Virus record (IMG/VR): IMGVR_UViG_3300027985_000627
Location: 23,319-87,318 of that record
Source of the DNA: a virus
DNA: 64,000 nucleotides
Direction: 5' to 3' (one strand)
The position numbers and the translations under genes are program-made. Shown here in pieces: positions 1,971 through 58,542 of the stretch (the stretch's first letter is position 1; each line of letters begins with the position of its first letter). The notes under the pieces were generated by a model. The model made no database searches and was not told the origin of the DNA. It worked only from the letters and a program-made list of their open reading frames with translations.

Positions 1971-2360
1971 GTGCTTACAGTAACCAAACGGTTTCATTTC
2001 TGCTACGGGCACCATTTGCCTGGTCATCAAGGTAAGTGCAAAAACTTTCATGGACACAACTGTATATTGGAAGTTACCGTGTACAAGAAAGGGTCTTCCA
2101 AAAAATCTAGCGAAGAAGAGTTTTATTTGGATCAAGCTATGGTTATGGATTTCGGTGATCTTAAAAAAGTTGTAAATCCGTTGATCGAGAAACTTGATCA
2201 CCAAAATATTAATGAGGTTCTGCCTGAAAAGTACCTTCCCTCCACCGCAGAAAACATGTGTTTGTGGTTTTTGGATATGTTGGTGAAAGAGGGTATCGGT
2301 GTCGATAAAATTCGAATTTACGAAACCCCAGATAACTGGGCTACGTGGAGTAGTCGATGA
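1971..2360 (+). CDS. queD: 6-carboxy-5,6,7,8-tetrahydropterin synthase QueD
   Basis: 129 aa T-fold enzyme that converts 7,8-dihydroneopterin triphosphate to 6-carboxytetrahydropterin, the second step of the 7-deazaguanine pathway. The zinc ligands are visible as H14 in 'FCYGHH' and the HGH pair at 27-29. The catalytic Cys is C23, four residues before the HGH. 'MDFGDLKKVV' and a C-terminal 'YETP' element also fit the family. I chose the GTG at 1971 because it is preceded by GGAGAA and gives the normal family length; the upstream extension has no family similarity. The stop overlaps queE by 4 bases. Confidence 0.93.
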   Translation: MLTVTKRFHFCYGHHLPGHQGKCKNFHGHNCILEVTVYKKGSSKKSSEEEFYLDQAMVMDFGDLKKVVNPLIEKLDHQNINEVLPEKYLPSTAENMCLWFLDMLVKEGIGVDKIRIYETPDNWATWSSR

Positions 2361-3016
2361 TCGTAAATGAAATTTTTCGATCCATTGACGGGGAAGCCAA
2401 CTTCTACGGTCAAGGGATTCTCACTACGTTTATCCGACTTCAAGGATGTAACGTTCGGTGTGCTTTTTGCGACACCATGTATTCTCAGGGACCGTATGAT
2501 AAAGATGGCACGTCCATGTCTATCAACGAGATTTACGAAAAGGTTTGCAAACTCGGAAATGACAAGGTTACCATCACTGGTGGCGAGCCTTTGTTTCAGT
2601 TGGACGATGCAGCCACTTTAGCTCGGAAACTTTTGAGAAGTGGGACGAAAGTAACAATTGAAACAAACGGAACGATCATGATTCCGAAAATCGGAAACGT
2701 TGGTTGGGTCGTTGATTTCAAGTTGCCTTCTTCTGGTGTGACTGATAAAATGTGTATGGAAATTTTTCCTGAACTGGGAGAAAAGGACATTATTAAGTTT
2801 GTAATTTCTGACAAATCGGACTTTGACAAAGCCATGCATGTTATTGCTAGCGGTGCTTTGGGAATTACCAAACCCAGAAACAAAAGGCCTAGGTTTGCAT
2901 TCTCTCCCATTCTGCATCGTTTGGAACCAGTCAAATTGTTGAATTGGATGATGATGGCTGATTTGCAGGATTCGTTTCTAAGTGTTCAGGTACACAAACT
3001 TTTGAGCGTCAAATAA
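2357..3016 (+). CDS. queE: 7-carboxy-7-deazaguanine synthase QueE (radical SAM)
   Basis: 219 aa. It ring-contracts 6-carboxytetrahydropterin to 7-carboxy-7-deazaguanine (CDG) using S-adenosylmethionine and a [4Fe-4S] cluster. The N-terminal 'EIFRSIDGE' and the radical-SAM cluster motif CNVRCAFC (CxxxCxxC, residues 31-38) are intact. 'TITGGEP' is the SAM-binding GGE motif and 'ETNGT' follows. The C-terminal 'VQVHKLL' matches the usual end of QueE. It is translationally coupled to queD and supplies the precursor for the DpdA-like protein downstream. Confidence 0.93.
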   Translation: MIVNEIFRSIDGEANFYGQGILTTFIRLQGCNVRCAFCDTMYSQGPYDKDGTSMSINEIYEKVCKLGNDKVTITGGEPLFQLDDAATLARKLLRSGTKVTIETNGTIMIPKIGNVGWVVDFKLPSSGVTDKMCMEIFPELGEKDIIKFVISDKSDFDKAMHVIASGALGITKPRNKRPRFAFSPILHRLEPVKLLNWMMMADLQDSFLSVQVHKLLSVK

Positions 3017-3091: not shown

Positions 3092-3709
3092 ATGAGCGAT
3101 GGAATCAACATGAAGGAACTGAAGCAGGCCGTCACCGAACTTAACGAAGCTGGTGTTCTCGACAAGAAAATCAAGATTGTCGGCGTTGGCAAGGATGATC
3201 TGGCTGCCGCGTTTGAGGAAGCTGTCAACGGTCTGGACGATGAGAAGGCTGAAAAGCTGACCGCTTTCACCATTGATTTCTTCAACAACAACTTCGGTGA
3301 GGATGAGAATACCGAAGAAGGCGGCGTCGAAGCTTCGGATGAAGAAGAAACTGACGGTGAGGAATCTGAAGGTGAGGAAGAGCCGGAAGAAGAATCTGAG
3401 CCGGAAGAAGAAGAAAAGCCGAAGAAGGCTGCGAAGAAAGAAAAGGCCAAGAAGGCTCCCAAGGAAAAGAAAGAGAAGAAGTCGAAGGAGCCGGTCGAGA
3501 AGTCTCGTTACGGACACACTGTCGGCTCTCAAGCGGCCTTGATTGACGACGCTATTTTTGAAGGCGGCACGATGCAGGAGATGATGGAAGCTACTGGTCT
3601 GTCTAAGGCTCGCATCAAATCCCATATTTACCATCTTGAAAAGAAGAAAGGCATTGTCATCAAGACCACCGGCGAAGGTGACAAAACGGTTTTCAAAGCC
3701 AAGAAGTAA
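3092..3709 (+). CDS. Acidic/Lys-rich linker protein with C-terminal winged-helix-like domain
   Basis: 205 aa. Residues 1-70 look globular and helical. Residues 70-110 are almost pure Glu/Asp with Pro, and 110-140 are Lys-rich. The final 60 residues form a compact helix-turn-helix-like domain with the signature 'SQAALIDD...RIKSHIYHLEKKKG'. The same C-terminal signature recurs in the protein at 63046-63651, and more weakly at 56353-56817. Family not recognised. Charge segregation followed by a DNA-binding-like domain suggests a nucleoid-like or regulatory protein. It sits between queE and folE and is closed by an intrinsic terminator. Confidence 0.6.
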   Translation: MSDGINMKELKQAVTELNEAGVLDKKIKIVGVGKDDLAAAFEEAVNGLDDEKAEKLTAFTIDFFNNNFGEDENTEEGGVEASDEEETDGEESEGEEEPEEESEPEEEEKPKKAAKKEKAKKAPKEKKEKKSKEPVEKSRYGHTVGSQAALIDDAIFEGGTMQEMMEATGLSKARIKSHIYHLEKKKGIVIKTTGEGDKTVFKAKK

Positions 3710-3769: not shown

Positions 3770-4345
3770 ATGGACCTTAATAAAATGGCTGAGGGTTTCA
3801 GAACCCTCATGGAAGCTTCTGACCTTGATTTGAATGATCCCAATTTTTGCGGCACTCCTATGCGAGTGGCCAGAATGTTCGAAAACTTCTTTGAAGGAAC
3901 AAAACCTGAAGCCGAAGAAGAAATAGAAAAATACCTTTCTGTAACATTCCCTGCTGAATACAAAGAGCTTATCACGTTCCTCAATATATCTTGTTGGAGC
4001 ATGTGCCCGCATCATTTTCTTCCTGTGAAGTACAACGTGTCTGTCGGTTATATTCCGAATGAAAGCGTTCTCGGTGCTTCGAAGATTCCTCGGCTTGTGA
4101 TCTTGCTTGGAAAAAGACCTGTTCTTCAAGAACAGTTTACGAAGGACATAACGTCTTATATAAATAGATTTGCTAAACCTGCTGGCGTCATTGCTGTGGT
4201 TGAAGGGCGCCACATGTGTATGCAATCACGTGGTGTTAAGACAACTGCAACGATGAACACAGCCTCTTTGTCTGGATGTTTTGAAACACAGCATGAGACT
4301 AGAAAAGAGTTTTATGACCTTATAGCAAGGGGTTCCACGTTATGA
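3770..4345 (+). CDS. folE: GTP cyclohydrolase I (FolE)
   Basis: 191 aa. It makes 7,8-dihydroneopterin triphosphate from GTP, the entry step for the deazaguanine pathway. The zinc site is C79, H82 ('CPHH') and C150 ('RHMCM'). 'VGYIPNESVLGASK' and 'QEQFTKDI' are the usual T-fold active-site segments. In the zinc motif the usual Glu after the first Cys is Pro. Preceded by GGAGG just after the terminator, so it probably starts a new transcript or is read through. Overlaps the next gene by 4 bases. Confidence 0.93.
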   Translation: MDLNKMAEGFRTLMEASDLDLNDPNFCGTPMRVARMFENFFEGTKPEAEEEIEKYLSVTFPAEYKELITFLNISCWSMCPHHFLPVKYNVSVGYIPNESVLGASKIPRLVILLGKRPVLQEQFTKDITSYINRFAKPAGVIAVVEGRHMCMQSRGVKTTATMNTASLSGCFETQHETRKEFYDLIARGSTL

Positions 4346-4692: not shown

Positions 4693-5710
4693 GATATTCA
4701 ACGTCCCCATTGAGCCGTTGGACGCCCGTTACTCCACCCAATGGTTGGATTGGTTTTCTCAAGCTTTCATTTATCATGAAATCGAATACCAGCATGTAAT
4801 AGGAAAACCTCTGACCAATGAAATTGAAGACGGTGCTTTCCTAGATATCTGCGGTACCAACTACTACAAAGCTTCCCAGTTGATGGTTCTCATTGACCTG
4901 ATTAAGAATCGTGAAATACGAGATAACGATGTTGTCTTCTTTCACGATATTTGGTTTCCTGGTCTGGAAATGTTGCAGTACATTCGTGACGGACTAAAAT
5001 TGAATTTCAAGATTTACGGCTGCCTCCACAGCGGAACTTACGATCCTACGGACTACATTTCTCTTCTTGGTATGTCTCGTTGGGGAAGGGAACTTGAAGA
5101 ATCTTGGTTCAAGATTGTTGACGGTATATTCGTCGCTACGGATTTCCATCGAAATCTTCTCATAAATAATCGGAAAGTTGATTGGAAAAAAATACACGTT
5201 ACGGGCTTCCCTTTGAAAGCCCCGGATATCTGCGACGTGAAAAAGATGGAGCCGAAGCAGAAACGGGTTGTTTTTCCCCATCGTTTGAACGCAGAAAAGC
5301 ATCCTGAAAAGTTTGATGAAATGCGATTTAAATGGCCTTTGGGTCAAGATTGGGTTTTCTCGAAGACTCAGGATAAGAAGATGGACAAAAGAACGTACTA
5401 CAAATTCTTGTCTGATTCTTCGGTCGTCGTCTCTTTCTCAGATCATGAGAACTGGGGAATATCAATGATCGAGGGCGTTATGCTCGGATGTGTCCCTTTT
5501 GTTCCCAATCGTTGCAGCTACCCTGAATTATACCCGAAAATGTTCGTGTACGAAAATGAAGATGATTTGTACGGCAGACTTATTCCGAATTACCTTAAAA
5601 ATGAAAGTGATTACAAAGTCTACACCTACGCTTTAGCCGAACGTTTCAAACTGAAGTTTCACCCTATGAACGTGTTGCAAAACATGCTACCCATCATGTT
5701 TGGAAGGTGA
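4685..5710 (+). CDS. GT4-like retaining glycosyltransferase in the deazaguanine operon
   Basis: 341 aa from a GTG overlapping the preceding gene by 8 bases. The C-terminal half has the EX7E motif of GT-B retaining glycosyltransferases (E255 and E263 in 'HENWGISMIEGVMLG'), followed by 'GCVPFVPN' as expected for the nucleotide-sugar pocket. No signal peptide or membrane segment is seen, so it is cytoplasmic. Its place between deazaguanine synthesis and the DpdA-like gene suggests it sugars a modified base. A host-surface or protein substrate cannot be excluded. Confidence 0.72.
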   Translation: MAKIFNVPIEPLDARYSTQWLDWFSQAFIYHEIEYQHVIGKPLTNEIEDGAFLDICGTNYYKASQLMVLIDLIKNREIRDNDVVFFHDIWFPGLEMLQYIRDGLKLNFKIYGCLHSGTYDPTDYISLLGMSRWGRELEESWFKIVDGIFVATDFHRNLLINNRKVDWKKIHVTGFPLKAPDICDVKKMEPKQKRVVFPHRLNAEKHPEKFDEMRFKWPLGQDWVFSKTQDKKMDKRTYYKFLSDSSVVVSFSDHENWGISMIEGVMLGCVPFVPNRCSYPELYPKMFVYENEDDLYGRLIPNYLKNESDYKVYTYALAERFKLKFHPMNVLQNMLPIMFGR

Positions 5711-5713
5711 TAC

Positions 5714-6613
5714 GTGTCTAAGAAAGAAATTACCATGTTCTTGGACTCCGGAGCATACTCGGCTATGACTAAAGGGGCTGAGATTGATCTGGACGAATAC
5801 ATTGCTTTCATCAAAGAGAATGGTCATTATTTCGACGCCTACGCTTGCCTTGACGTTATCGGTGATCCCAAAGCGAGTTGGGAAAACCAGATGTACATGG
5901 TGAGCAAAGGTCTTTGTCCTGTTCCTGTTTACCACTTGAACGACCGTGACCTTTCATACCTGAAAGCTATGGTTGACGAGTTCCCTTACATAGGTATCGG
6001 TGGTATGGCTGGAACGGAAGAGACAGGATTCTCGTTGACTTGGGAACAGGTTGTAGAACTTCTGGATCACCTTTGGTCTGATTACATTTGCGACAAAGAC
6101 GGTTTACCGAAAGTCAAAGTTCACGGGTTCGGTATGACTCGTCCTACAATCATGCGTCGGTATCCGTGGTACTCTGTGGATTCTACTTCTTGGGCCATCT
6201 ATTCAAAGTACGGCATTGTACTATTTCCTAGAAAGAAAAACGGACAATACGTCTATGACAAAGAAGTTTGGAAGATTAAAGTATCCAGCGTGTCTCCTGG
6301 TAAGAAAGATGAAGGAGAACACATTGAAAACGTTACCGATACAGAACGAAAAGTCCTTCTCGACTACATCAAAGAGAAGGGTTTTAAACTTGGAGCGTCT
6401 GAATTCAAAGATGTTGAAGTAGGTTACAAACTCAAAGAGAACGAGCGGTTTAATGGCAAAGGCAAAACCCGAGTGGAAGTCCTTGTAGAAACTGGTTTGG
6501 TCAATTCTGGTGAACTGCGAGATCGTTTAAACTTCATCTACTACATGGATTTTCTCGCTACAATTCCTAAGTGGCCGTGGTCATTTAAAACCAGAAGACG
6601 TTTTATATTTTGA
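5714..6613 (+). CDS. dpdA: DpdA-like DNA deazaguanine transglycosylase (TGT family)
   Basis: 299 aa, GTG start after GGAAGGTG. It resembles phage DpdA proteins, which are TGT-fold enzymes that swap guanine in DNA for a 7-deazaguanine. Visible marks are 'MFLDSGAYSA' (Asp11), 'YIGIGGMAG' (92-100), 'VHGFGMT' (136-142) and 'YSVDSTSW' (Asp156), which correspond to the TGT barrel phosphate-binding and catalytic-Asp segments. The Cys3-His zinc motif of tRNA-guanine transglycosylases is not seen. Neighbours supply the base precursor (folE, queD, queE). Which base it inserts cannot be told, since QueC is not in the window. Confidence 0.82.
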   Translation: MSKKEITMFLDSGAYSAMTKGAEIDLDEYIAFIKENGHYFDAYACLDVIGDPKASWENQMYMVSKGLCPVPVYHLNDRDLSYLKAMVDEFPYIGIGGMAGTEETGFSLTWEQVVELLDHLWSDYICDKDGLPKVKVHGFGMTRPTIMRRYPWYSVDSTSWAIYSKYGIVLFPRKKNGQYVYDKEVWKIKVSSVSPGKKDEGEHIENVTDTERKVLLDYIKEKGFKLGASEFKDVEVGYKLKENERFNGKGKTRVEVLVETGLVNSGELRDRLNFIYYMDFLATIPKWPWSFKTRRRFIF

Positions 6614-7377: not shown

Positions 7378-8332
7378 AGACTCGGCTAAATTTCTCTTCA
7401 CCGATGATTACGTGGCTACTTGCAGTGGTAATCTTTTCGTGTATTATCCTAAAGGGTTTGGTGTGAACTGCCTCGTTGATAGCTCCGACATGCTTTCGAC
7501 TGTCAAAGCCATCAGTGAAAACGAAATCAAGATGGAAGTGAAGAAAGATAAACTCCACATTTCATCGAAGACTACCAAAGCCAAACTCAACGCATACATA
7601 GGCGACAACACTATCACCAAATTCATCAACAAGATGGATGTTTCTACTCTGGATTTCGAAGAGCTTCCCAAAGGGTTCAAAACCGGATTCGAACTGTGTT
7701 CGTTTTCGTACATGAAGACGGATTGCACGAATCGGTTTTACAATGTGTTTTGTGACGGCGACTGTATTTTTTCTACGGACACGTATAGGGTCAGTATCTA
7801 CGAACTCCCTGAAGAGGACAAGTCATTGTCCTTCGCGATACCAGGGCCCCAGAGCGAAGTTTTACGCGATTACGACATTGTGGGTTACTGTCTTCTCGAA
7901 AACTGGCTGGTGCTAGAAACCGCTGATGGGGCAATCATAGGAACCACGTTGTCGAAGGCTGAACCTTTCGATTGGGAAAAATCATTTGAGGACTTCGACG
8001 AAGACGAAGCTTCTAACATTCGTATTCCGAAAGAAGTCAAAGACGCTGTGGATTCTATCAGCTTCATGACTGATATCGACGTTAAGAAAGATCAGGTCGT
8101 TGAAGTTGAATTGACTGAAGGGTTTCTCACTCTCAGGATGAAAAAAGAAAGTGGCACTATCGAAAAGACCGTTGAAGTGAAATATAAAGGTCAGGACGTT
8201 AAGTTCTCTATGGTGCCTGAATTCTTTTCCCAAATACTTTCTCATGCGACTGTAGCCAAGATCGGTAAAAGTTCCGCTATTTTCAAATCTCACGGTTTCA
8301 CCCACAATATGCTTCTTCCTATGGAGGAATAA
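7307..8332 (+). CDS. DNA polymerase sliding clamp (DnaN-like)
   Basis: 341 aa with a strong AAAGGAG before the ATG. Sequence similarity to bacterial beta clamps is weak, but the length, the beta-rich pattern, the C-terminal 'HNMLLPMEE' (compare the DnaN ending 'VVMPM') and the position directly upstream of the polymerase and clamp-loader genes support the call. It would encircle DNA and tether the polymerase. The stop overlaps the polymerase start (ATAATG). Confidence 0.75.
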   Translation: MLKSELEKVLLAVKPGLAKRKVDEDSAKFLFTDDYVATCSGNLFVYYPKGFGVNCLVDSSDMLSTVKAISENEIKMEVKKDKLHISSKTTKAKLNAYIGDNTITKFINKMDVSTLDFEELPKGFKTGFELCSFSYMKTDCTNRFYNVFCDGDCIFSTDTYRVSIYELPEEDKSLSFAIPGPQSEVLRDYDIVGYCLLENWLVLETADGAIIGTTLSKAEPFDWEKSFEDFDEDEASNIRIPKEVKDAVDSISFMTDIDVKKDQVVEVELTEGFLTLRMKKESGTIEKTVEVKYKGQDVKFSMVPEFFSQILSHATVAKIGKSSAIFKSHGFTHNMLLPMEE

Positions 8333-10932
8333 TGGCTCTCAGAAAGGGCTTTTTCAAAGAGAAGGCTTCTGGACCCGACTGTGTAAAATGTAAACTCGGT
8401 TCTAAATGCCGTAATCCTAAGCTACCTGTTTACGGTCTTGGCAAACAGAAAGCTTTGATTATCGGTTCTCAGCCGTCTATCATGGACGACAAGTTTGGTA
8501 AACTTGGCAACGGTGAAGCTACGGAGTTTCTGGAAGAAGAACTTGAAAAGTTTGGTTTGGATTTGTACGACGACTTTTGGAAAATCAACGCCGTAAACTG
8601 TGCTACTCCAAAAGGCCGCAAACCGACCAGAAAAGAAATAAACTGTTGTCGTCCATATATCGAAAACATCATTGAAGAACTTAAACCGAACGTCATCATC
8701 CTTCTAGGTGACCAAGCTATAGAATCGCAATTCAACGGACGTTTCAAAGACCTTTCTGTCACACGATGGAGAGGTCTTTGCGTTCCTGAAGTGAAAAATA
8801 ATGCTTGGGTTGTCCCTTTGATGCACCCTGCTCACGTTGTGAAGATGAAGTGGGACGCGCATTTGAAACGGACTTTCAGAACCGATTTGAAGTACGCTTT
8901 GTCCGTATTGAGAAAGAAAGAGAAACCTGAAGTTCTTCCTTATCAAGAACATGTTCACCTTCTCACAACGATGGGAGAAATACGCGGATTGTTCGATTAC
9001 CTGAAGAAAGAAAAACCTTTATCTGCGTATGACTGGGAAACTTCTGCCATAAAACCGTATGATTCCGATCAATTAATATGGTCTTGCGCCATCGCTACTG
9101 AAAGAGGATCCTACGCTTTCCCAATTCACTACCCGTCTGGTTCGTTTTATCCTAAAAAAGGTTCTGATTTTTATTGGGACAAACACCTTGAAGAAGTGGA
9201 AGACCTTGTGAGTTGGTACATCAATGATCCTGAGATGAAAAAGATTGCCCACGGATCAAAGTTTGAAACTACTTGGGGAACTACTGTTCTCGGTAAAGAA
9301 ACTCGTGGAATTGAATGTTGCACAATGACCAGGCAACATGTTCTTGATGCACGAAAGAAATTCTGCGGATTGAAGTTTCAGCTTTTCATTCGTTACGGCA
9401 TCGAAGGGTACGAGAAAGGAACAAAGAAGTATTACCCTGAAGGTCACGGCAACACCAAGAACGAGTTGTTTAAGATGCCGTTGAAAGAACTCCTTACGTA
9501 CAACGGCATTGACGCTTTCGGAACTCTGAAACTCTATCATGACCAAAATGACGAACTCAGAATAGGAACAAAAAGTCCTAAAGAAGACTTGATAAAGTGT
9601 AGCCAACTGTTTCAAGATGGTCTTGAGGCTCTTGGTGAAGCCCAGATGAACGGCATACGAATGGATTTGAAGTTGCTCCATTCTATGAAAGATGATCTTA
9701 CAAAGACCATCGACAATCTGGCTTTGCTTCTGAATGAATCCAGAGAAGCCGTAGAGTTCAAAAAGTTCACTGGTGAAGAATTGAATTTCAATTCTTCAAA
9801 GCACCTTGGAACTTTACTGTTCGATGTAATGAAGTTGGAGCCGACAAAGAAAACATCGTCAGGGTCTAACTCAGTCGATAAAGAAGCACTGACAGCTTTT
9901 GATAGCGAATTTACGCGCAATCTGCTCGAATACCGAAAGTTTTTGAAGATACGTGATACGTACATCGCTCAATTCGTCAACGAGATAGGCGAAGACGGAT
10001 TACTGCATCCTTTCTTTGATCTGCATACAGCCAGAACTGGTCGTTCCAGTAGTTCATCCCCTAACTTCCAGAACATCCCTATCAGAACGGATGAAGGCAA
10101 AGAACTCCGAAAGATTATCATTCCAAGAAAAGGACATAAGATTTCTGAGAATGATTATGGATCAATCGAAGTTCGCATTGCCGCTTGCTACACAAAAGAT
10201 CCTGTTCTCATTTCGTACATCAATGATCCAACTACAGACATGCACCGAGACCAAGCACAAGAACTGTTCTTGCTCAATTCTGAAGAAGTGAACAAGACGC
10301 TTCGGTTTTATGCAAAGAATGGTTGGGTGTTCCCTCAGTTTTACGGTTCATACTACAAAAACTGTGCTTCTGGACTGTGGGAAAACTGTCATAACTTACC
10401 GGTTGGTAAGAACAACGACGGCTTAATACTCACGGAACATTTACGGAAGAAGGGCATAAAGTGTTACGATGATTTTGTTGAACACTGCAAACATCATGAG
10501 AAAGCCTACTGGGACCGTTTCACTGTATTCAAAGAGTGGCAAGAGTCTGTCAAGCAGTTTTATTTGAAGTACGGTTACACCAAATCGTTCTTTGGATTCA
10601 GACGTTCTGGTTATCTTTCACAGAACGACGTAATAAACACACCGATTCAGGGAACAGCTTTCCATTGTCTTCTATGGTCGTTTGCTAGGATCAGCAAGAT
10701 TGCCAAGAAAGAAAAATGGAACTCTAAGCTGATCGGACAGATTCACGACTCCATCATCATTGACTTGGATCCTGCTGAAGAAACACATGTTCTGAAGACG
10801 GTTAACAAAGTCATGACCATCGACATTCGTGAAGACAACGACTGGATCATTGTTCCTCTTGAAGTGGAACCTGAACTTACTGGTGTTGATGAACCTTGGT
10901 ACTACAAGAAAGCAGTACCGTTACCTGCGTAG
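8332..10932 (+). CDS. Uracil-DNA glycosylase-DNA polymerase A fusion
   Basis: 866 aa. Residues 1-190 resemble Fe-S family uracil-DNA glycosylases: CVKC and a further Cys near the N-terminus, 'IIGSQPS', and 'LMHPAHVV' as the HP motif. Residues about 215-420 are a 3'-5' exonuclease domain ('YDWETSA' near 233 with the DxE pair; 'YNGID' as ExoIII). The rest is a family-A polymerase: motif A 'NDYGSIEVRI' (about 607), an O-helix starting 'RFYAKN' with Arg and Lys in place and ending in 'FYG', and motif C 'QIHDS' (about 803). Motif A has Gly-Ser-Ile where DYSxIE is usual. No 5' nuclease domain; that activity is a separate gene at 15027. Confidence 0.93.
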   Translation: MALRKGFFKEKASGPDCVKCKLGSKCRNPKLPVYGLGKQKALIIGSQPSIMDDKFGKLGNGEATEFLEEELEKFGLDLYDDFWKINAVNCATPKGRKPTRKEINCCRPYIENIIEELKPNVIILLGDQAIESQFNGRFKDLSVTRWRGLCVPEVKNNAWVVPLMHPAHVVKMKWDAHLKRTFRTDLKYALSVLRKKEKPEVLPYQEHVHLLTTMGEIRGLFDYLKKEKPLSAYDWETSAIKPYDSDQLIWSCAIATERGSYAFPIHYPSGSFYPKKGSDFYWDKHLEEVEDLVSWYINDPEMKKIAHGSKFETTWGTTVLGKETRGIECCTMTRQHVLDARKKFCGLKFQLFIRYGIEGYEKGTKKYYPEGHGNTKNELFKMPLKELLTYNGIDAFGTLKLYHDQNDELRIGTKSPKEDLIKCSQLFQDGLEALGEAQMNGIRMDLKLLHSMKDDLTKTIDNLALLLNESREAVEFKKFTGEELNFNSSKHLGTLLFDVMKLEPTKKTSSGSNSVDKEALTAFDSEFTRNLLEYRKFLKIRDTYIAQFVNEIGEDGLLHPFFDLHTARTGRSSSSSPNFQNIPIRTDEGKELRKIIIPRKGHKISENDYGSIEVRIAACYTKDPVLISYINDPTTDMHRDQAQELFLLNSEEVNKTLRFYAKNGWVFPQFYGSYYKNCASGLWENCHNLPVGKNNDGLILTEHLRKKGIKCYDDFVEHCKHHEKAYWDRFTVFKEWQESVKQFYLKYGYTKSFFGFRRSGYLSQNDVINTPIQGTAFHCLLWSFARISKIAKKEKWNSKLIGQIHDSIIIDLDPAEETHVLKTVNKVMTIDIREDNDWIIVPLEVEPELTGVDEPWYYKKAVPLPA

Positions 10933-18133: not shown

Positions 18134-18442
18134 ATGGAACGGGTCGTTGAAACTATTATTGGAAAAATTCCTGATTGTGAGCCTAGAATCCTTCAATTTG
18201 AAGTAAAAAAGAATTGTGAAATTCTGTGTGTTCGCGCAACGGATTATACCGACGTGAACAACTGTGTAGCTTTGGATATCGAATGTTCTCCGAATGAAAC
18301 TGAAAAAGTCGGCAAAAGTATTCGATTTGTGAAGCCGAACGAGCAATTTGCCAAAACAGTCAATGATAAGTTCCTGGGTTTAGTCCGATCATGGCAAACC
18401 ATCTATTACGTTTACGAGGTAAGGTGCAAAAATGATTGCTGA
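18134..18442 (+). CDS. Hypothetical protein upstream of thyX
   Basis: 102 aa, mixed alpha/beta, with scattered Cys but no spacing typical of a zinc site. It overlaps thyX by 11 bases, so the two are probably coupled. Not recognised. Confidence 0.45.
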   Translation: MERVVETIIGKIPDCEPRILQFEVKKNCEILCVRATDYTDVNNCVALDIECSPNETEKVGKSIRFVKPNEQFAKTVNDKFLGLVRSWQTIYYVYEVRCKNDC

Positions 18443-20069
18443 TCTGAAAGTTGAATTACTGGCTAAGACTCCGAATATGGAAGAGTTAGCTTTATCGGCA
18501 ATGAAACAGTGCTATTCCAATGGATATGCTGGTGACATATACGTTGGTATGCTTATGTGCAAAACTTTCGATCCTAAAATGCTTCTTTCTGTCATGTCTT
18601 CTGGTCATGTCAGCCCCATCGAACATGGATCGTTTACGTTTGCCATTGCTGGTGTTTCAAGAGCATTGACCCATCAACTTGTTCGGCATCGTCTGGCGTC
18701 GTACTGCTTATCTGGTGATTCTAAAATAGTTTCCTACAACTCCGTAAAGAGTAGGAGTTCCCGTGTTCGCACAATACGAGAATTGTATGAAATGAGTAAA
18801 AACCCCAAAAGGAACGGTCCATTTTCTTTAATACGAATCAGAAGTGTAGATGAAAATGGAATAATAGTTTCAAATAAAATTGTGAAAGTATTTAAAACAG
18901 GGAAAAAACCAGTTTACAAAGTCACCACTGTTAGCGGTAGATGTATAAAGTCTACTAAAGAACACCGATTTAAAACAAAGGAAGGGTTCGTAAGACTGAG
19001 TGAACTATCTGTTGGTGATACTGTAATTGTCAACGGTCTACCTTGTTATAAAAATAAAGAATGGTTAGAAGATCAGTACCTAAACAAGAACAAAACCAGA
19101 GATGAAATCGCTGAATTAGCTGGTGTTAGCAACCCTTGCATTGGAAATTGGGTGAAGAGGTTTAAATTAGTTAAACCTAGATCGGCGTACCCCAATAGAA
19201 AACCGGGACACGGAGTACCGGGAATGTTTTCTGAAAAAGTGAAAAAGAAATTAAGCGAACAAAAGTTAGGAAGCAAGAACCCAGCTTGGCTTGGTGATGG
19301 TGCTTCTGAAAATGCAGGAAGACTACGTGCCCAAAAAATGTATCCTGCTTGTGAGTGTGAAACTTGTGGAGCCAAAACCAGATTTGAACGACACCACATT
19401 GATGGAAACACCAAAAATAACGACCGCAGTAACATTTTAGTTTTATGCTCGGCTTGCCATCGTAGTCACCACAATCTGAATGGCGCTGTTTTAGCCGTAC
19501 ATTCTGATAAAATAGTTTCCATAGAGTACGTGGGAGAAGAAGAAACATACGATTTGGAAGTTGGAAATCCACACAATTACGTAGCAGATGGATTCGTTGT
19601 TCATAATAGCCAACAATCACAACGTTACGTTGACGCTAAAAACGTTAGTTACATCATGCCACCCGAAATCGCCAAAATACCCGAAGCCAGAAGACTATTC
19701 GAATCGTTCATGGACACTTCAGCTTTGGTTTACGAAGACTTGCAGGAAATTCTCATCAAGAACGGTAGAAGAAAAACCGCTAATGAAGACGCCAGATTTG
19801 TTTTGCCGAATGCTTGTGAAACAAGGATCGTGGTCACAATGAATTGCCGATCTTTGATTCACTTCTTTTCTCTTCGTTGCTGCAAACGTGCCCAATGGGA
19901 AATCCAAGCAATGGCCAACCAGATGCTTGAGATTTGCAAAGCGAATGCTCCTACTATTTTCTCTTCGGCTGGGGCTAATTGTGATCTTTTAGGATACTGT
20001 CCTGAAGGAGAACGATCTTGTGGAAAAAAGAAAACTTTAGCAGAATTACAAGGAGTAAAAAATGATTAG
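18432..20069 (+). CDS. thyX: FAD-dependent thymidylate synthase ThyX, intein-containing precursor
   Basis: 545 aa precursor. The exteins join into a 244-aa ThyX, the normal length, which methylates dUMP to dTMP with methylenetetrahydrofolate, NADPH and FAD. The ThyX signature is split: 'RHRLASY' lies before the intein and 'SQQSQRY' after it, restoring the RHRxxSxxxxSxRY motif on splicing. Unspliced protein would lack an intact active site. Flanking genes overlap, so it is co-transcribed. It would serve phage DNA synthesis. Confidence 0.95.
   Translation: MIADLKVELLAKTPNMEELALSAMKQCYSNGYAGDIYVGMLMCKTFDPKMLLSVMSSGHVSPIEHGSFTFAIAGVSRALTHQLVRHRLASYCLSGDSKIVSYNSVKSRSSRVRTIRELYEMSKNPKRNGPFSLIRIRSVDENGIIVSNKIVKVFKTGKKPVYKVTTVSGRCIKSTKEHRFKTKEGFVRLSELSVGDTVIVNGLPCYKNKEWLEDQYLNKNKTRDEIAELAGVSNPCIGNWVKRFKLVKPRSAYPNRKPGHGVPGMFSEKVKKKLSEQKLGSKNPAWLGDGASENAGRLRAQKMYPACECETCGAKTRFERHHIDGNTKNNDRSNILVLCSACHRSHHNLNGAVLAVHSDKIVSIEYVGEEETYDLEVGNPHNYVADGFVVHNSQQSQRYVDAKNVSYIMPPEIAKIPEARRLFESFMDTSALVYEDLQEILIKNGRRKTANEDARFVLPNACETRIVVTMNCRSLIHFFSLRCCKRAQWEIQAMANQMLEICKANAPTIFSSAGANCDLLGYCPEGERSCGKKKTLAELQGVKND
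18705..19607 (+). mobile_element. Intein with HNH homing endonuclease in ThyX
   Basis: 301 aa insertion beginning with Cys ('CLSGDSKI', block A) and ending in 'VVHN' before extein Ser. 'SGRCIKSTKEHRF' supplies the TxxH block B, and 'TYDLEVGNPHNYVADGFVVHN' style blocks F/G end it. A helix-turn-helix-like segment ('TRDEIAELAGVS', about residue 223 of the precursor) and an HNH nuclease ('CETCGAKTRFERHHIDG', then CSACHRSHH) lie inside, so it can probably home. The base composition is more AT-rich than that of the flanking exteins, consistent with transfer. Confidence 0.93.
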
Positions 20070-50929: not shown

Positions 50930-52765
50930 TTATGCGGGCAACGATTCGTTTGAATAGAACGAACCAAAGTAAACAGAACCACCAATAGGACGAAAATCGT
51001 CCTGTGTCAAAGTCCGTCCACCAAATACGCACCAAGCAAGAGCGTACATGGTGTCATCCTGTATACCGTTCTTTGTGTTCTTCTCAGGCGACCCGTAGAA
51101 CTTCTTGTGTGCGTCATGGTCAAGCATTTGAGCTTCTTCGTAAAGGATATTGGGTCCTTTTGTGCCAGGAACTACTACTTCCGGACACTTAATACGCCCG
51201 GTTTTGTACAAATTGAACACTTCGGTGAATGCTGTTTTCTGCTTTTCGTAAGACGGATGGACAAGCTCGTACTTTATTCCGTTTTCGTCACACCACGGTT
51301 CCAAGTCGAACATAGCCCATCTTTCACTGCAAATTGTCTCAATTGTTCCGTATTCATCGCGCATCCGCTGCAATTCCAGTTTAATATCTTCCAAAGTGCT
51401 TGTTTCCACGTGACAAACGTTCAAAATGAAGTACACGTAGTTCGGTGCGCCAGAGCGTTCATTCGTCTCAAATTTCGTACTTTTGCTGCCAGGAAGCCCT
51501 TTTGCGACAGCAACAATCATGGTTCTAGCGCCCACTTCCATGTCTTTTTTCGTAGGATCCGCACGGTCAATACCCACGGAAATAGCAAAATCGGTGTCGT
51601 ATCTGTCAGATAATTGCTTCAAATCGTGTGCGGAAGCCATAGTTGGTATACCAAAACCATCTTTTAACGAGTATATTTCTTCAATTGGGATCAATCTCCG
51701 AAGGATTTCACGCACTTGCGAGTCTTCTTTCATCGTATCCTGGTGTTTATTCTTCAGTCCTTCGATTGTTTGACCCAATTCGTACTTTTTATGCAAAGCC
51801 TGCTGTATTTGTGCTTCTCCACCAAGCATTCCATCAATTCCGATGTACCCAAGACTCTCAATCATGGGAACAGTGAACAGTTTGCCGACACCGACGCTCC
51901 AAGTGTTCAGGAAGTACCTTCTGAAGTCTTCAGGTAAGAACTTGGAACGGTATGACGACAACTGCTTCTGCGTCATATTCGGGTGCCAGTAATCTTTATA
52001 GTGGCCGTTCAAGCTGTAGCGATAATGGAAGAACAAGGACGGGTCTTCACCGCTCTTGTACGTTTCATAGAGCTTGTAGAGTATGTGATTTTTCTCAGAA
52101 ACAGTGGAATCTATCGTACCAAGGGCATTGGGGATGTTTCTGATGGAACCGTCAAGCTGTGTATAGAACTTCGGATTCTTCATGTCGAAGATTTCCGAGA
52201 ACGTGTATCCGGTGATGTTCGAAACGATACCTGAGAAAGAAGAAATGGGTCGGATAAACGAGACAGTTTCACCTTTCCTATTCTTCATGCGGATTTCTTT
52301 TTCTTGAATGTTCTTCTTTCCAAGGATTTTGACCAAACGTGGGGAATTCAAGATTGTGTCGCGCATGATATCGAAGTGAACAAACTTGGTCTGGTCTTTA
52401 GAGTTCGCACCAAGGACGATCATTTGCTTAGGCCAGCAAAAGAACTTCCAAAGCTGTATGAGAACGACGACCGCAGATTTGCCTTCACCACGAGGCCAAC
52501 AGAATATAATAAGACGATGCAGAAAACGTCCGTTTTCGTCCATCTGCAAAGCTTGACGGAGAACATACTTCTGTTCGTCCCAAAAATCCTGGAAGCTTCT
52601 TCCTGTTTCAGGATCAAGATCATCAGGCAGCGAGTGCATAGGCACCCACTCAGGAATCAATTTGCCAGGGGGAGTCAACGGGATGTAGAGGAAGTCTTCG
52701 CACCACTGAATGAATCCATCACCACCGTTTCTGTAAACCGAGATATCTTTGATTTGATTCGGCAT
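50930..52765 (-). CDS. terL: Terminase large subunit (TerL)
   Basis: 611 aa. Walker A-like 'WPRGEGKSAV' (about 90-99), coupling and adenine-binding segments in the next 150 residues, and an RNase H-like nuclease domain from about 390 with 'VGIDRADPTKKD' and the terminal 'NGIQDDTMYALAW'. It would package DNA through the portal. The stop of the small subunit is 3 bases upstream. Packaging type (cos, pac or terminal repeats) cannot be told from sequence by eye. Confidence 0.9.
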   Translation of the reverse strand: MPNQIKDISVYRNGGDGFIQWCEDFLYIPLTPPGKLIPEWVPMHSLPDDLDPETGRSFQDFWDEQKYVLRQALQMDENGRFLHRLIIFCWPRGEGKSAVVVLIQLWKFFCWPKQMIVLGANSKDQTKFVHFDIMRDTILNSPRLVKILGKKNIQEKEIRMKNRKGETVSFIRPISSFSGIVSNITGYTFSEIFDMKNPKFYTQLDGSIRNIPNALGTIDSTVSEKNHILYKLYETYKSGEDPSLFFHYRYSLNGHYKDYWHPNMTQKQLSSYRSKFLPEDFRRYFLNTWSVGVGKLFTVPMIESLGYIGIDGMLGGEAQIQQALHKKYELGQTIEGLKNKHQDTMKEDSQVREILRRLIPIEEIYSLKDGFGIPTMASAHDLKQLSDRYDTDFAISVGIDRADPTKKDMEVGARTMIVAVAKGLPGSKSTKFETNERSGAPNYVYFILNVCHVETSTLEDIKLELQRMRDEYGTIETICSERWAMFDLEPWCDENGIKYELVHPSYEKQKTAFTEVFNLYKTGRIKCPEVVVPGTKGPNILYEEAQMLDHDAHKKFYGSPEKNTKNGIQDDTMYALAWCVFGGRTLTQDDFRPIGGSVYFGSFYSNESLPA

Positions 52766-52767
52766 GA

Positions 52768-53466
52768 TTACACCTCAAAAACTTCGTCAGGCTTCAAACG
52801 GCGTTGAAGTTTCTTTCGGCGTCCAGGAACCGGTTTCTCTTCTTTCTTCTGTTTTCTCTGGCGAGTAAACCAGTCAGCTTTTTCAGCAGCCGCAGCTTCT
52901 TTGCCAGCGGTAGTTTCAGAAGCGTCAGTGTTGTCGAACAAGTTGTCACACCAGTCGGAAGTGTCTTCACCGGTTCCAGCACCAAGGAACTTTTCAAGTG
53001 GTTCGTCAGAAACTGAACCGCGTAAAGAACGAGTAGCAATGGTTATGGAACGAAGGGTTTCACGGATTTCTTTGTAGACAGGATGGATTTTGATTCCACC
53101 TTTTTCAGTAAAGTAGGAAGGAGAATCCAAACCAAGTTCCAGGATTTTGAATTTCACAAGATGTCCATAAAGAGGGACAATGTGCAGACCGATCGTGTTC
53201 ATAATGGAAGGGGTGATCGCCCCAACAGTTTCCATTTCTTCGACAAGGCCTTGGATGATGTTAGACACGTACTTGAACTGAAGAGTACAACGTCCGGTTT
53301 TCTGGTAATGGCATTTTTCTTCGATCACGCACCGTTCACCTTTGCAGTCTTCCACAGCATCCCAAACAACAAGTTGCAAACGTTCTTTACCAACGGAAAT
53401 AGACCCTTTAGTCAAAGCGATGGAACCGAAGTTATTTTTGGTATTGGTAGGGATGTCAACCGACAT
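52768..53466 (-). CDS. Probable terminase small subunit
   Basis: 232 aa from ATG 53466 (AAAGGAGG 7 bases upstream). First gene of the late operon, directly before TerL. A four-Cys segment ('CKGERCVIEEKCHYQKTGRC') could bind zinc, a helical central part follows, and the C-terminus is Lys/Arg-rich. No helix-turn-helix of a known TerS family is clear, so the role rests on position. Confidence 0.6.
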   Translation of the reverse strand: MSVDIPTNTKNNFGSIALTKGSISVGKERLQLVVWDAVEDCKGERCVIEEKCHYQKTGRCTLQFKYVSNIIQGLVEEMETVGAITPSIMNTIGLHIVPLYGHLVKFKILELGLDSPSYFTEKGGIKIHPVYKEIRETLRSITIATRSLRGSVSDEPLEKFLGAGTGEDTSDWCDNLFDNTDASETTAGKEAAAAEKADWFTRQRKQKKEEKPVPGRRKKLQRRLKPDEVFEV

Positions 53467-53677
53467 AAGAACCTCCTTTATGAAAGCACAGAAATAGACG
53501 CAGAAAAGGAGCGTGTCAAGCATGGGCAGGAAACTTATTTGTAGTGTCTTACGGACAGCGTTTCATGATTAACAACGTGTGTTGTGTCTCATACGTGAGA
53601 AACAAACGCGGGAAGTGTCTCTGGAGAAGCGTGGAAACGTGTTTATACTCTGATACTATGAAGAAAAAGGAGCCAGT
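53467..53677. promoter_or_regulatory. Divergent intergenic region between late operon and the 53678 gene
   Basis: 211 bases separating two divergent transcripts. On the minus strand TTGACA (53514-53519) is a perfect -35 with a 17-base spacer to TATTTC (53491-53496), a poor -10, so a late activator may be needed. On the plus strand TATACT (53644-53649) is a good -10 without a good -35. TCTCA-TACG-TGAGA (53587-53600) is a 14-base perfect palindrome centred between them and a candidate operator. Confidence 0.55.
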
Positions 53678-54553
53678 ATGACAGATGAAGAATTGATGCG
53701 GGAAGCTTTGTCGCTTTGCGGAAAAAACGGAGCACATCTTTTATATCTCACAAGGTTTGGTTCAGAACTCTACGGAACGAACACGATCAATTCCGACACG
53801 GACGCGAAAGGAGTGTTCCTCCCTAACCTCGATGATTTGATCTTGGGAAAAGCTCCGAAGAACTTAATCTACAAAACATCGGATAACGGTGAAAGAAACA
53901 CCAAGGACGATGTGGACATAAACCTTTGGAGTTTGCAGTATTGGTTGGAGTTACTCCAGAAAGGTGACACCAATGCCATCGACTTGCTTTTCTCTTACAA
54001 CAGTCCAAGCATGATTTACTGTGTCAACGGTTTGGAATACATGATGGAAGAAAACTACGGAAAATTCTACAGCCCGAAAAATCTTTCAGCGTACACGGGT
54101 TACATCATCGGACAAGCTAAGAAATACGGAGTCAAAGGTTCTAGGCTTGGTGTTATTAAAAGAGTCTACGAATGGTTGGACGAAAACATAACCGTTGGTA
54201 GACTGGAACACTTCATGGATGCAATCCTGAAGGAATGCGGAGAACCTTCGTATTGCTTTGAAAAAGAAGTGAACAACCAACGGTCGGTAATCTTATGCGG
54301 CAAAGTCCACCAAGGCACAATCCAGATGGACGAGTTTAGGGATAGGATTCAAAAGGATTATGAAGGTTACGGAGAAAGAGCAAGATTGGCGGAACAGAAT
54401 GAAGGCATAGACTGGAAAGCTTTAAGTCATGCGGTGAGGTGTATCCACCAAATGACTATGCTCTTGAAAAATGGCAGAATAGTGTTTCCGCTGAAAACGT
54501 CGGAATACTTAAAGCATATCAAACAAGGCAAAAGTCTCTTGGAAAGACGTTGA
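53678..54553 (+). CDS. Predicted nucleotidyltransferase (YcgL/COG3541-like)
   Basis: 291 aa after AAAGGAG. 'RFGSELYGTNTINSDTDAKGVFLP' is the GS...DxD nucleotidyltransferase motif of the polymerase-beta superfamily, and 'DVDINLW' adds the third acidic residue. A helical C-terminal part follows. Enzymes of this type are seen in large phages; the substrate (tRNA, protein or small molecule) is unknown. Confidence 0.75.
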   Translation: MTDEELMREALSLCGKNGAHLLYLTRFGSELYGTNTINSDTDAKGVFLPNLDDLILGKAPKNLIYKTSDNGERNTKDDVDINLWSLQYWLELLQKGDTNAIDLLFSYNSPSMIYCVNGLEYMMEENYGKFYSPKNLSAYTGYIIGQAKKYGVKGSRLGVIKRVYEWLDENITVGRLEHFMDAILKECGEPSYCFEKEVNNQRSVILCGKVHQGTIQMDEFRDRIQKDYEGYGERARLAEQNEGIDWKALSHAVRCIHQMTMLLKNGRIVFPLKTSEYLKHIKQGKSLLERR

Positions 54554-56183: not shown

Positions 56184-56303
56184 AGCAGAGGAATCCTAAA
56201 ATCCACGAAAAAAATTGTGAGGGGGTACGGCACACACACTCAATAGACAAAACGCAAGATAAAACAAGGGGGTCTATATTAGATTGTCTATAGATTGAGA
56301 CAA

Positions 56304-56338
56304 AAGAAAAAGCGCGCATCGTGCAGACTGCGCGCTTT
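56304..56338 (-). terminator. Intrinsic terminator of the 56353 gene
   Basis: On the minus strand AAAGCGCGC pairs perfectly with GCGCGCTTT (9 bp) around a 12-base loop, followed by TTCTTTTG. The stem is made of alternating GC without any GG or CC, as is the whole segment. Confidence 0.85.
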
Positions 56339-56352
56339 GAGTGAACGTGAAG

Positions 56353-56817
56353 CTAAATTTTTCTGAGCGAGAGAACTTGAGCAGAAACAAGAGTCTTTGA
56401 CTTGTTGAGCGAAAGCTTAATCTTGTCGCTCTCTTCGCGCTTCAAATGCGAGATATGCTGAAGAACTCTCTCGCGCGAGCATTCACACAACTGCGCGATA
56501 TCTTCGACGCTTTGAACGTCGTGTGCAATCGCGCTTTCGATCAAATAGCTTTGAGTGAGAAAACGCGCATTCGTGAAGTATTTGACATATTCGCGTTCAG
56601 TTCTTCTCACTCTCACATTCGACGCTTCTCGCTGTTCGATTTCTTCGCGCTTCAAAACTTCTTCACGTTCGAACGCTTCAGCAAGTTCGAGCGTAGAAAG
56701 ATTGCTTGAATTGATAGAAAGAAAAAGATTCAAAATTGCAAGCGTTTGAAAGCTCGAAAAATCAATCGCGCTGTTTTCTTCAATAATTTCGACGTTCTTC
56801 TGATTGTTCTTTTGCAT
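56353..56817 (-). CDS. Helix-turn-helix protein encoded without Gly, Pro or Trp
   Basis: 154 aa. Contains no glycine, proline or tryptophan at all, a direct consequence of the absence of GG and CC. It is highly helical; about residues 105-130 form a helix-turn-helix ('VEDIAQLCECSRERVLQHISHLKREE') whose 'R.L.HISHLK' resembles the 'HIYHL' domains at 3092 and 63046. The ribosome site is AGAGAGAAA, lacking GG. It has its own terminator. A DNA-binding regulator acting on the palindromes at 57.1-57.3 kb is a reasonable inference. Confidence 0.7.
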   Translation of the reverse strand: MQKNNQKNVEIIEENSAIDFSSFQTLAILNLFLSINSSNLSTLELAEAFEREEVLKREEIEQREASNVRVRRTEREYVKYFTNARFLTQSYLIESAIAHDVQSVEDIAQLCECSRERVLQHISHLKREESDKIKLSLNKSKTLVSAQVLSLRKI

Positions 56818-56870
56818 GACGTTTCTCTCTTTTAGTTGATTGTTCGTTGAAATAGTTGACTATTTTACGT

Positions 56871-57035
56871 TTACTCGAAAAATCTTGCGCGCTTTTCACG
56901 AATGCGCTTCAATTCTTCTTCAAATGCTCTTTGCTCTTTTTCATCAAATTCATTGTCGATTAATGAAAACTGAGCAAGAAAGCGTCTTTTGTCATAATAC
57001 GCTTTGAACGTGTTTTCTGTCTGCGTCTTTTTCAT
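56871..57035 (-). CDS. Small helical protein without Gly, Pro or Trp
   Basis: 54 aa from ATG 57035; GAGGGGGAAAAG immediately upstream is one of only two breaks in the GG/CC depletion. Entirely charged helix (EKEQRAFEEELKRIREKRARFF). It precedes the helix-turn-helix gene in the same direction and is probably co-transcribed with it from the repeat region upstream. Confidence 0.65.
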   Translation of the reverse strand: MKKTQTENTFKAYYDKRRFLAQFSLIDNEFDEKEQRAFEEELKRIREKRARFFE

Positions 57036-57092
57036 CTTTTCCCCCTCGTTTTTGTCTGAATAGTACGCTTGCAAAAAATCTTTTCAATCCCC

Positions 57093-57309
57093 GCACGAAA
57101 AAATATTTTAAGCGTCGTTCGTGTTACTATTCGTTCAATTCGTGTTACTCAAAATCGTATGCAATTCGTAACACGTTTTTTCAATTCGTTACATGTATGT
57201 ACATACATGACACAAAACACGAATTCGTGTTATTTGCTCAAAACGTAACACGAATTTTGAAAAAGTATCGTATGCAATTCGTGCTACGAATTCGACGAGG
57301 CGTGTTACT
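57093..57309. promoter_or_regulatory. Iteron and palindrome array upstream of the GG/CC-free genes
   Basis: Repeats of AATTCGTGTTAC and its complement GTAACACGAATT occur at 57118, 57137, 57168 (inverted), 57217-57231 (perfect palindrome AACACGAATTCGTGTT), 57245 (inverted) and 57301. An exact 16-mer ATCGTATGCAATTCGT occurs at 57154-57169 and 57267-57282. ATGTATGTACATACAT (57193-57208) is a second perfect 16-base palindrome. Apart from the final bases the stretch is also free of GG and CC. It looks like an operator array or a replication origin. Confidence 0.8.
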
Positions 57310-57613
57310 GCGAGGCAGGCAGGCACGAATACATGCAGACTACACAATACGTTCGCACACAGCACGGATCGGACAACTGTCCAGATGAAACTCTATGTTG
57401 CCTGGTCCTGCGGCAGGTACGCGCATAGAGGGAGGTCTGTGTCGCCTGAAATTCAGCCTTGCTCGGCACCTGCCTACCGATCGTTCTACATAGTCAACGT
57501 GAATCATCTATCGCAATCTCTGTTTCCTTTCGTTACCGATTAGCCTGACGTTAACCTTCAATGCCTGTACAGTCTGATTCTGTTTGTTGAATCATCATTG
57601 CCTAAACCTAATA

Positions 57614-57633
57614 GGTGGATCCTAGGATCCACC
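57614..57633. repeat. 20-base perfect palindrome
   Basis: GGTGGATCCT followed directly by AGGATCCACC; every base pairs, with no spacer. It lies in the non-coding region between the CCTGCCT repeats. Confidence 0.9.
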
Positions 57634-58162
57634 GGATAAACCTAACTTAAAACCGTAGCCTGCCTGTATGTGTGCAAATCAAAGGTTGTGATCCGTGGTT
57701 TACTATTCTGTTTTGTTTAGCCGACGATTCTATATGCCTACCTGCCTTTGTGTGATTTTATCTGTCGGATTTACGCCGGCAGAATTTTATTCGGTTTTTT
57801 CGAGATTCCCTCTTGCGTTTGAAAATACAAAATTCTGCCAGACCTTTGTTTGGATGAATTTTGTTCTGTTTTGTTTAATCCACGGTTTTCCTGCCTGTAT
57901 GTGTGTATTTAGAAAAGTTCAATCGGATCAACGAAAGACGAATTCCAGCCTTTCGTAAAAATAAATAACCGTAATAAAATCAACGAATGGTTGATTTTCA
58001 GCCTGCCTGTGTGTCTTTCTGTTTGTCTTCTTTTTAATTTTAAATGCCTTCGGATAATGTTTTTCTTAAGGAAATCACGAAAGTTCAGGTATGTAAAAGC
58101 AGGGAAGTAATCAAGGGTAATGTAAACCGAGGCAGGTAGGCATATAGAACCACGGACATGCA

Positions 58163-58248
58163 CGGCAGAATATTATTCTTTCACCCCTTCTGGGATTTCT
58201 CAAAATTTGTTCTGGCTTTTTAACAAGGATAAGAATTTTATTCTGCCG
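58163..58248. repeat. Imperfect long inverted repeat
   Basis: CGGCAGAATATTATTCTT (58163-58180) and AAGAATTTTATTCTGCCG (58231-58248) pair at 15 of 18 positions around a 50-base loop. A related GGCAGAATTTTATTC lies near 57778. Confidence 0.8.
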
Positions 58249-58407
58249 TATGCTGAAACACAGAACGCGAGGCAGGCAGGATTATAGGTCCGTACGCTGA
58301 AAATACTTAGCCGTAGCCCCTGTGGCTGCACCATAGACACGTAGGCAGAAAGGATTGATTGTATCCGTAGGTTAAGGATTAATGGTTAGGTACACAGGTT
58401 ATTATTT

Positions 58408-58542
58408 TCACAGTGAGGGCCCTAGGTGTCGCCTAAACGCAGGAACCCTTTGTTTCACAAGGGTTCGTGTATATCCACAGGACCGAGAAAATATTTCGTC
58501 CATGCGCGAGGGGAGGCAAATCTCCACCCCTTTAACCAGCAT
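58408..58542 (-). CDS. Possible 44-aa peptide gene in the non-coding region
   Basis: ATG 58542 follows a very good ribosome site (GGGAGGAG, 6-7 bases). The 44 residues are Arg/Leu-rich without a recognised motif. The DNA also folds into two hairpins (GGGGAGG...CCACCCC and GAACCCTT...AAGGGTTC), so it may be an RNA element and not a gene. Confidence 0.35.
   Translation of the reverse strand: MLVKGVEICLPSRMDEIFSRSCGYTRTLVKQRVPAFRRHLGPSL

What the first reader, a model, noticed from the sequence alone, without database searches (positions are those of the whole stretch)
56273..57040. 768 bases with no GG and no CC on either strand
I checked every line: there is not one GG or CC between 56273 and 57040, although G and C are common as GC and CG (GCGC runs). 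At about 20% each of G and C, roughly 60 or more would be expected. The rule holds in two genes, at codon junctions, in the gap between the genes and in the terminator. The flanking DNA is ordinary. So a nucleotide-level constraint acts on this segment only. Candidate causes (inference): avoidance of NGG-type PAMs on both strands; avoidance of a GG-containing motif targeted by a nuclease or by the phage's own DpdA (from memory, preQ0 in phage CAjan was mapped to GA and GGC motifs); or an RNA requirement.
Basis: seen in the sequence. Interest (0 to 1): 0.95.

Follow-up and report, generated by a model that had tools for sequence, protein, structure and literature searches.

The report
GG-free operon beside phage terminase
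A group of uncultured phages keeps one complete one-kilobase operon beside its DNA-packaging genes totally free of a two- or three-letter DNA word (usually GG), at the price of every glycine, proline and tryptophan in its proteins, probably so that the phage's own DNA-modifying enzyme can never mark it.

Summary
Confirmed, and much larger than reported. Window 56273-57040 has no GG or CC (about 73 expected; Markov null 91-155 bp). In 4.57 Mb of fetched sequence every GG/CC-free gap of 300 bp or more lies at one locus: upstream of terS/terL in about 16 divergent phages, 374-1186 bp long, usually ending at a conserved cis-element near terS. The segments are whole transcription units: GG-free Shine-Dalgarno (GAAAGAGAG), one to three small genes, GG-free terminator. 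0 of 2266 encoded residues are Gly, Pro or Trp. Relatives avoid other words in the same place (YGG, KGG, GGB, GGW). All seven relatives where DpdA (7-deazaguanine insertion) is visible have such a segment; in the GGB-free relative an N4/N6 methyltransferase occupies the DpdA slot; a relative with neither enzyme has a weak match to the cis-element but no word-free segment. Best explanation: the missing word is the target motif of the phage's own DNA-modifying enzyme, and this operon is kept unmodifiable. The motif-enzyme link and the reason (leading-end expression, unmodified terminal repeat, origin/switch, or self-nuclease escape) are inferred, not shown. DpdA alone is not sufficient: other DpdA phages lack such a segment. 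No precedent was found in the papers held.

The parts
56273..57040 (.). GG/CC-free segment
57041..57298 (.). continuation of the segment, free except for CCCCC 57041-57045 and CCCC 57089-57092
56871..57035 (-). gene A, 54 aa, no Gly/Pro/Trp; Shine-Dalgarno GAGGGGG just upstream
   Evidence: ORF; no homolog found
56353..56817 (-). gene B, 154 aa, predicted long helix plus C-terminal winged helix, no Gly/Pro/Trp; GG-free Shine-Dalgarno AAAGAGAG
56309..56338 (-). terminator-like hairpin with AAAGCGCGC/GCGCGCTTT stem, no GG or CC
   Evidence: read from sequence
57117..57308 (.). iteron-like repeat array (CGTGTTAC / GTAACACG) upstream of gene A
57192..57209 (.). perfect 18-bp palindrome CATGTATGTACATACATG
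   Evidence: read from sequence
56195..56275 (-). conserved cis-element bounding the segment on the terS side (box 1 ACCCCC..TATCTTG; box 2 ACCCCCTCACAATTTTTTT); candidate terminase (cos/pac) site
   Evidence: E 9.6e-14, but the window sequence is one of the 11 used to build the model
52768..53523 (-). putative terminase small subunit (by position and conservation only)
50930..52765 (-). terminase large subunit
   Evidence: PHROG 9, 1.8e-15
5714..6613 (+). DpdA (7-deazaguanine-inserting TGT-like enzyme)
   Evidence: PHROG 887, 1.1e-52
2357..3016 (+). QueE-like radical SAM protein
   Evidence: (PF04055)
3770..4345 (+). FolE, GTP cyclohydrolase I
   Evidence: PF01227, 4.4e-49
3092..3709 (+). Lys-rich protein in the modification cluster whose C-terminal domain is homologous to that of gene B
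   Evidence: E 2.2e-10

Best explanation
The segment is a modification-proof island. (1) Shown: a complete operon with its control region, next to a conserved cis-element upstream of the terminase genes, is kept free of a short G-purine word on both strands in many related phages, and the word differs between phages. (2) Inferred, main claim: the word is the recognition motif of the phage's own sequence-specific DNA-modifying enzyme (here DpdA, which would insert a 7-deazaguanine at GG; in one relative an N4/N6 methyltransferase), so this operon carries no modified base while the rest of the genome does. (3) Inferred, weaker: the cis-element is the terminase cut site, so the operon lies at the end of the virion DNA. 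Either it enters the host first and must be transcribed at once by host RNA polymerase from DNA without modified bases (about 0.35), or it is a terminal stretch synthesised during packaging, too late to be modified, so that unmodified motifs there would be exposed to nucleases (about 0.2), or it is the origin or switch region whose winged-helix protein and iterons must work the same on modified and unmodified DNA (about 0.2).
For: Recurrence at one syntenic locus in about 16 phages and nowhere else in 4.57 Mb. Strand symmetry and different words at the same locus: GG, YGG, KGG, GGB, GGW; GGR in a phage with another terminase. DpdA in all 7 TerL relatives where it is visible, plus G050. Enzyme swap with word swap: G001 has an N6_N4_Mtase (PF01555, 5.7e-17) in the DpdA slot and avoids GGB. 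Control: G012 has neither enzyme, has the repeat array and a weak match to the cis-element at the right place, and avoids no word. Known precedent for G-purine specificity: DpdA of CAjan acts at GA and GGC (cited in PMC8306585). Whole-unit constraint: 0 of 2266 residues Gly/Pro/Trp; GG-free Shine-Dalgarno GAAAGAGAG, but AAGGA- or GAGG-type ones where the word allows. Edge at the conserved element.
Against: No modification map exists for these uncultured phages; the motif-enzyme match is not shown. DpdA is not sufficient: seven other DpdA contigs and five isolates have no such segment. There is one enzyme swap and one negative control only; many contigs are too short to show the enzyme slot, and the phages are not independent. 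G-runs of four or five are tolerated in the Shine-Dalgarno of the window, L033 and L067, unexplained by a simple GG motif. Why coding DNA must also be free is not settled. The cis-element alignment behind the model was made from sites chosen next to segments; only its hits outside the training set are independent.
Confidence: 0.55

Rival explanations
1. Self-nuclease avoidance: the phage makes a nuclease or nickase of GG-type specificity that destroys host DNA; modification protects most of the phage genome, but this operon must survive or be copied in an unmodified state and so has lost every site.
For: Viral nicking enzymes with such short words exist with matching methyltransferases (chlorovirus Nt.CviPII, /CCD; PMC7019647). 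Words vary around a CC/GG core as such specificities do.
Against: No nuclease was linked to the trait here (not searched systematically). It does not by itself explain why only this locus would be unmodified.
Confidence: 0.18
2. Avoidance of host restriction or modification-dependent nucleases in the first-injected end only, unrelated to the phage's own enzyme.
For: Leading regions of conjugative plasmids carry anti-defence genes (PMC11541004, title and abstract); the segment may lie at a genome end.
Against: Restriction sites are 4 bp or longer; total loss of a dinucleotide is far more than needed. The word tracks phage lineage and enzyme slot.
Confidence: 0.1
3. CRISPR PAM avoidance (NGG-like words on both strands).
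For: GG, YGG and GGB look like PAM variants.
Against: Only one operon is free while tens of kilobases beside it are full of the word, so targeting would not be escaped; no spacer was tested.
Confidence: 0.03
4. RNA-level or translational constraint (folding, ribosome pausing, ribonuclease).
For: The unit coincides with a transcript.
Against: Both GG and CC, and in variants a word and its complement, are absent; non-transcribed flanks and repeat arrays obey too.
Confidence: 0.02
5. Mutational decay, hypermutation, foreign origin or assembly artefact.
For: Odd composition, and no relatives of the segment's DNA in the phage and plasmid collections.
Against: Intact genes, with Shine-Dalgarno and terminator built without GG, in independent metagenomes; permitted GG contexts remain common in the variants; the same locus each time.
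Confidence: 0.03
6. Primase-site or other replication-signal avoidance at an origin.
For: Iteron-like arrays and a winged-helix protein; a weak PHROG hit of gene B to a replication initiation protein (E 0.11).
Against: Repeat enrichment is not seen in all segments (L011, L146); does not predict the link with the modifying enzyme or its absence in G012.
Confidence: 0.06

Closest known systems
DpdA / 7-deazaguanine modification of phage DNA (CAjan, 9g; Queuovirinae)
   Same: dpdA with queE and folE in the genome; short G-purine motifs known for CAjan (GA, GGC).
   Different: Different terminase lineage; CAjan, 9g, NP1, BcepGomr and ART show no word-free segment in the parts scanned.
Chlorovirus short-word modification/nicking systems (M./Nt.CviPII, CCD)
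   Same: Viral enzymes with 2-3-base words on a CC/GG core and self-protection by modification.
   Different: No word-free operon is described there; no nuclease was identified here.
Restriction-site avoidance in phages and in plasmid leading regions
   Same: Selection against a recognition word in mobile DNA.
   Different: Usually partial, genome-wide and for sites of 4-6 bp; here total, for 2-3 bases, in one operon.
Phage genome ends: first-step-transfer DNA of T5, terminal repeat of T7 (from general knowledge)
   Same: Terminal segment with host-type promoters and early genes; T7 terminal repeats are completed during packaging.
   Different: Neither is known for word-free composition; the terminal position here is inferred only.

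Membership tests
DpdA-dependent 7-deazaguanine phage | dpdA gene | tested here: met
   window 5714-6613, PHROG 887 E 1.1e-52; 256 phage records match
DpdA-dependent 7-deazaguanine phage | preQ0 synthesis genes | tested here: met
   QueE-like and FolE found; QueC and QueD not checked in this genome
DpdA-dependent 7-deazaguanine phage | modified guanines in virion DNA | not testable with these tools
   uncultured metagenome record, no raw reads
Queuovirinae | terminase and genome related to CAjan/9g | tested here: not met
   TerL has no match in 50,697 phage records at E 1e-5
Own-motif avoidance island | word equals the motif of the phage's own enzyme | not testable with these tools
   only the correlation of enzyme slot and word was tested
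Own-motif avoidance island | word absent on both strands of coding and non-coding DNA of the unit | tested here: met
cos/pac site | conserved cis-element near terS, one strong copy per genome | tested here: met
   including hits outside the training set (L012, L067, L038)
cos/pac site | terminase cleavage at that site | not testable with these tools
   contig starts cluster upstream of terL but at no common base

The most novel reading that the evidence does not exclude
Phages that write their own sequence-specific DNA mark keep one operon at the packaging or genome-end hub completely unwritable, adapting amino acid use, ribosome-binding sites and terminators to the enzyme's motif; the missing word in the sequence therefore reveals the enzyme's specificity.
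Probability: 0.5. Interest if true: 0.93.

Novelty: categorically new. Interest (0 to 1): 0.88.

Why it matters
It is an extreme natural case of a nucleotide rule overriding protein, ribosome-binding and terminator sequence. If the modification reading is right, the specificities of DpdA and related enzymes can be read from genomes without chemistry, and the island points to a step of the phage cycle at which modified DNA is not tolerated, which then becomes directly testable.

Tried and rejected
Searches with the segment itself found nothing in phages, plasmids, IMG/VR or GTDB genomes; the relatives came through the terminase. An exact pattern from the repeat array found nothing. No Rfam family matched. 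Pfam and PHROGs hits of gene B (HSP33 C-terminus, HTH_11, replication initiation protein) are below cut-off. The weak second match of gene B in its own genome has stops and was taken as spurious. CAjan, 9g, NP1, BcepGomr and ART, and seven DpdA contigs of other lineages, show no such segment, so 'every DpdA phage has one' was rejected. Coincidence of contig starts as proof of a physical end was tested and not found. The second structure model (family B, mean pLDDT 56) was too poor to use. Profile comparison did not join gene families A, B/C and D, so a single protein family behind all segments is not claimed.

Full report
OBSERVATION. The count is right. Window 56273-57040 holds no GG and no CC; neighbouring sites are 770 b apart. 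The next gaps are 208 b (directly adjacent, 57091-57299) and then at most 81 b in the window and 103 b in the rest of the 87,318-b virus record. About 73 sites are expected, and Markov simulations of 64 kb give longest gaps of 91-155 b. The rule nearly continues to 57298, broken only by CCCCC (57041-57045) and CCCC (57089-57092).

ANATOMY. On the minus strand: an iteron-like control region (57117-57308, repeated CGTGTTAC/AATTCGTG and an 18-bp palindrome; 76 repeated 8-mer pairs against 4.8 expected), gene A (54 aa), gene B (154 aa) and a GCGCGC-stem terminator-like hairpin (56309-56338). Gene B is modelled as a long helix followed by a winged helix (mean pLDDT 75; best PDB matches mostly MarR-like but weak, E about 0.08). 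Its C-terminal domain is homologous to that of a protein inside the modification gene cluster (3092-3709, E 2.2e-10).

IT IS A FAMILY TRAIT. TerL relatives were scanned for word-free intervals. GG/CC-free segments recur upstream of terS/terL: L011 664, L012 374, L016 1024, L022 1017, L026 956, L028 614, L031/L032 828 (same sequence in two records), L033 612, L039 1146, L042 684, L049 1127, L051 457, L140 1186, L146 1041, L234 688 b. In 4.57 Mb of fetched sequence (overlaps included) every GG/CC-free gap of at least 300 b belongs to this locus. The sequences differ greatly between phages, so the absence has been kept through divergence.

OTHER WORDS AT THE SAME PLACE. L018 avoids YGG over 1123 b and L010 avoids TGG over 1272 b; L006 and L041 avoid GGB over about 2 kb while GGA stays common; L065 avoids GGW; L025 avoids KGG, with weaker statistics; L007 is depleted of GAT, GAG and GGA. 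G050, with another terminase, has a GGR-free stretch of 1.5 kb. Absence is symmetric on both strands, so the constraint is on duplex DNA.

COST AND ADAPTATION. In the GG-free segments 0 of 2266 encoded residues are Gly, Pro or Trp, against 12.4% in seven other proteins of this phage. Shine-Dalgarno sequences converge on GAAAGAGAG or GAAAGTGAG; in L006 (GGA allowed) they contain GGA, and in L018/L010 (AGG allowed) they contain AGG. Sigma70-like promoters lie 27-67 b inside the upstream edge in L011, L016 and L032, and GG-free hairpins lie near the other edge. The unit of constraint looks like the whole transcription unit; no transcript was measured.

LINK TO DNA MODIFICATION. The window phage encodes DpdA, QueE-like and FolE proteins. 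DpdA is visible in seven TerL-lineage phages: G000, G004, G007, G009, G046 (GG), G006 (YGG), G010 (KGG), and all have a segment; it is also in G050 (GGR). In G001 (GGB) the slot between helicase and sliding clamp holds an N6_N4_Mtase (PF01555, 5.7e-17) instead. In G012 the slot holds a radical SAM protein and no recognised modifying enzyme; a weak cis-element match (E 0.2) and a repeat array are present, yet no word is avoided. CAjan DpdA is reported to act at GA and GGC (PMC8306585). I infer that the missing word is the motif of the phage's own modifying enzyme. Limits: one enzyme swap, one negative, many contigs too short to see the slot, and DpdA phages of other lineages without a segment.

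BOUNDARY ELEMENT. The terS-proximal edge coincides, often to the base, with a conserved element (CCCCCTCG..TATCTTGA, then about 30-45 b on GGACCTCACCATAATTTTTTTCCCAAA). A sequence-only model built from 11 sites chosen next to segments finds one strong copy per genome in TerL orientation, including hits outside the training set: L012 1e-12, L067 2.3e-9, L038 5e-9. By position it is a candidate terminase site; cleavage is not shown.

MECHANISM. The best-supported statement is a modification-proof operon at a control or packaging hub. Why it must be so is open: first-injected immediate-early unit, terminal stretch made too late to be modified, or origin/switch region. The main rival is escape from a phage nuclease of the same specificity. 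PAM avoidance, RNA constraint, mutation bias and artefact are disfavoured by symmetry, locality, intact word-adapted genes and recurrence.

NOVELTY. Searches of the held papers found no precedent for a kilobase operon stripped of a di- or trinucleotide; that library lacks most subscription papers, including the CAjan mapping paper itself. The parts (DpdA, winged helix, terminase) are known kinds; the island is not.

Noticed in passing
window 57300-58500: Long non-coding stretch beyond the distal edge of the segment with scattered GGCAGG / CCTGCCTGTATGTGTG repeats.
   Followed up: no
window 8332-10932: Family A DNA polymerase fused to an N-terminal uracil-DNA-glycosylase-like domain (PF03167).
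   Followed up: no
window 18432-20069: ThyX thymidylate synthase interrupted by an intein with an HNH-like endonuclease.
   Followed up: no
window 53678-54553: RlaP-like nucleotidyltransferase on the opposite strand between terS and the segment.
   Followed up: no
window 4685-5710; L138 5302-6030: Glycosyltransferase-like gene directly beside dpdA in two phages; it might decorate the deazaguanine.
   Followed up: no
L111 4665-6485: DpdA of the YGG-avoiding phage G006 is split by a long insertion in one 606-aa frame.
   Followed up: partly
L101 9799-10773: G004 carries a second candidate modifying enzyme, a methyltransferase with a TSPPYW motif, next to dpdA.
   Followed up: no
L067 1-1889: Two adjoining stretches with different forbidden words; in the first, GG occurs almost only inside TGGG.
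   Followed up: partly
L007, L049, L061, L079 and other contig starts: Many contigs break within 5 kb upstream of terL, several in tandem repeats.
   Followed up: partly
L271 1-13866: In DpdA contig G040 the word CGCG is absent for 13.9 kb (about 38 expected).
   Followed up: no
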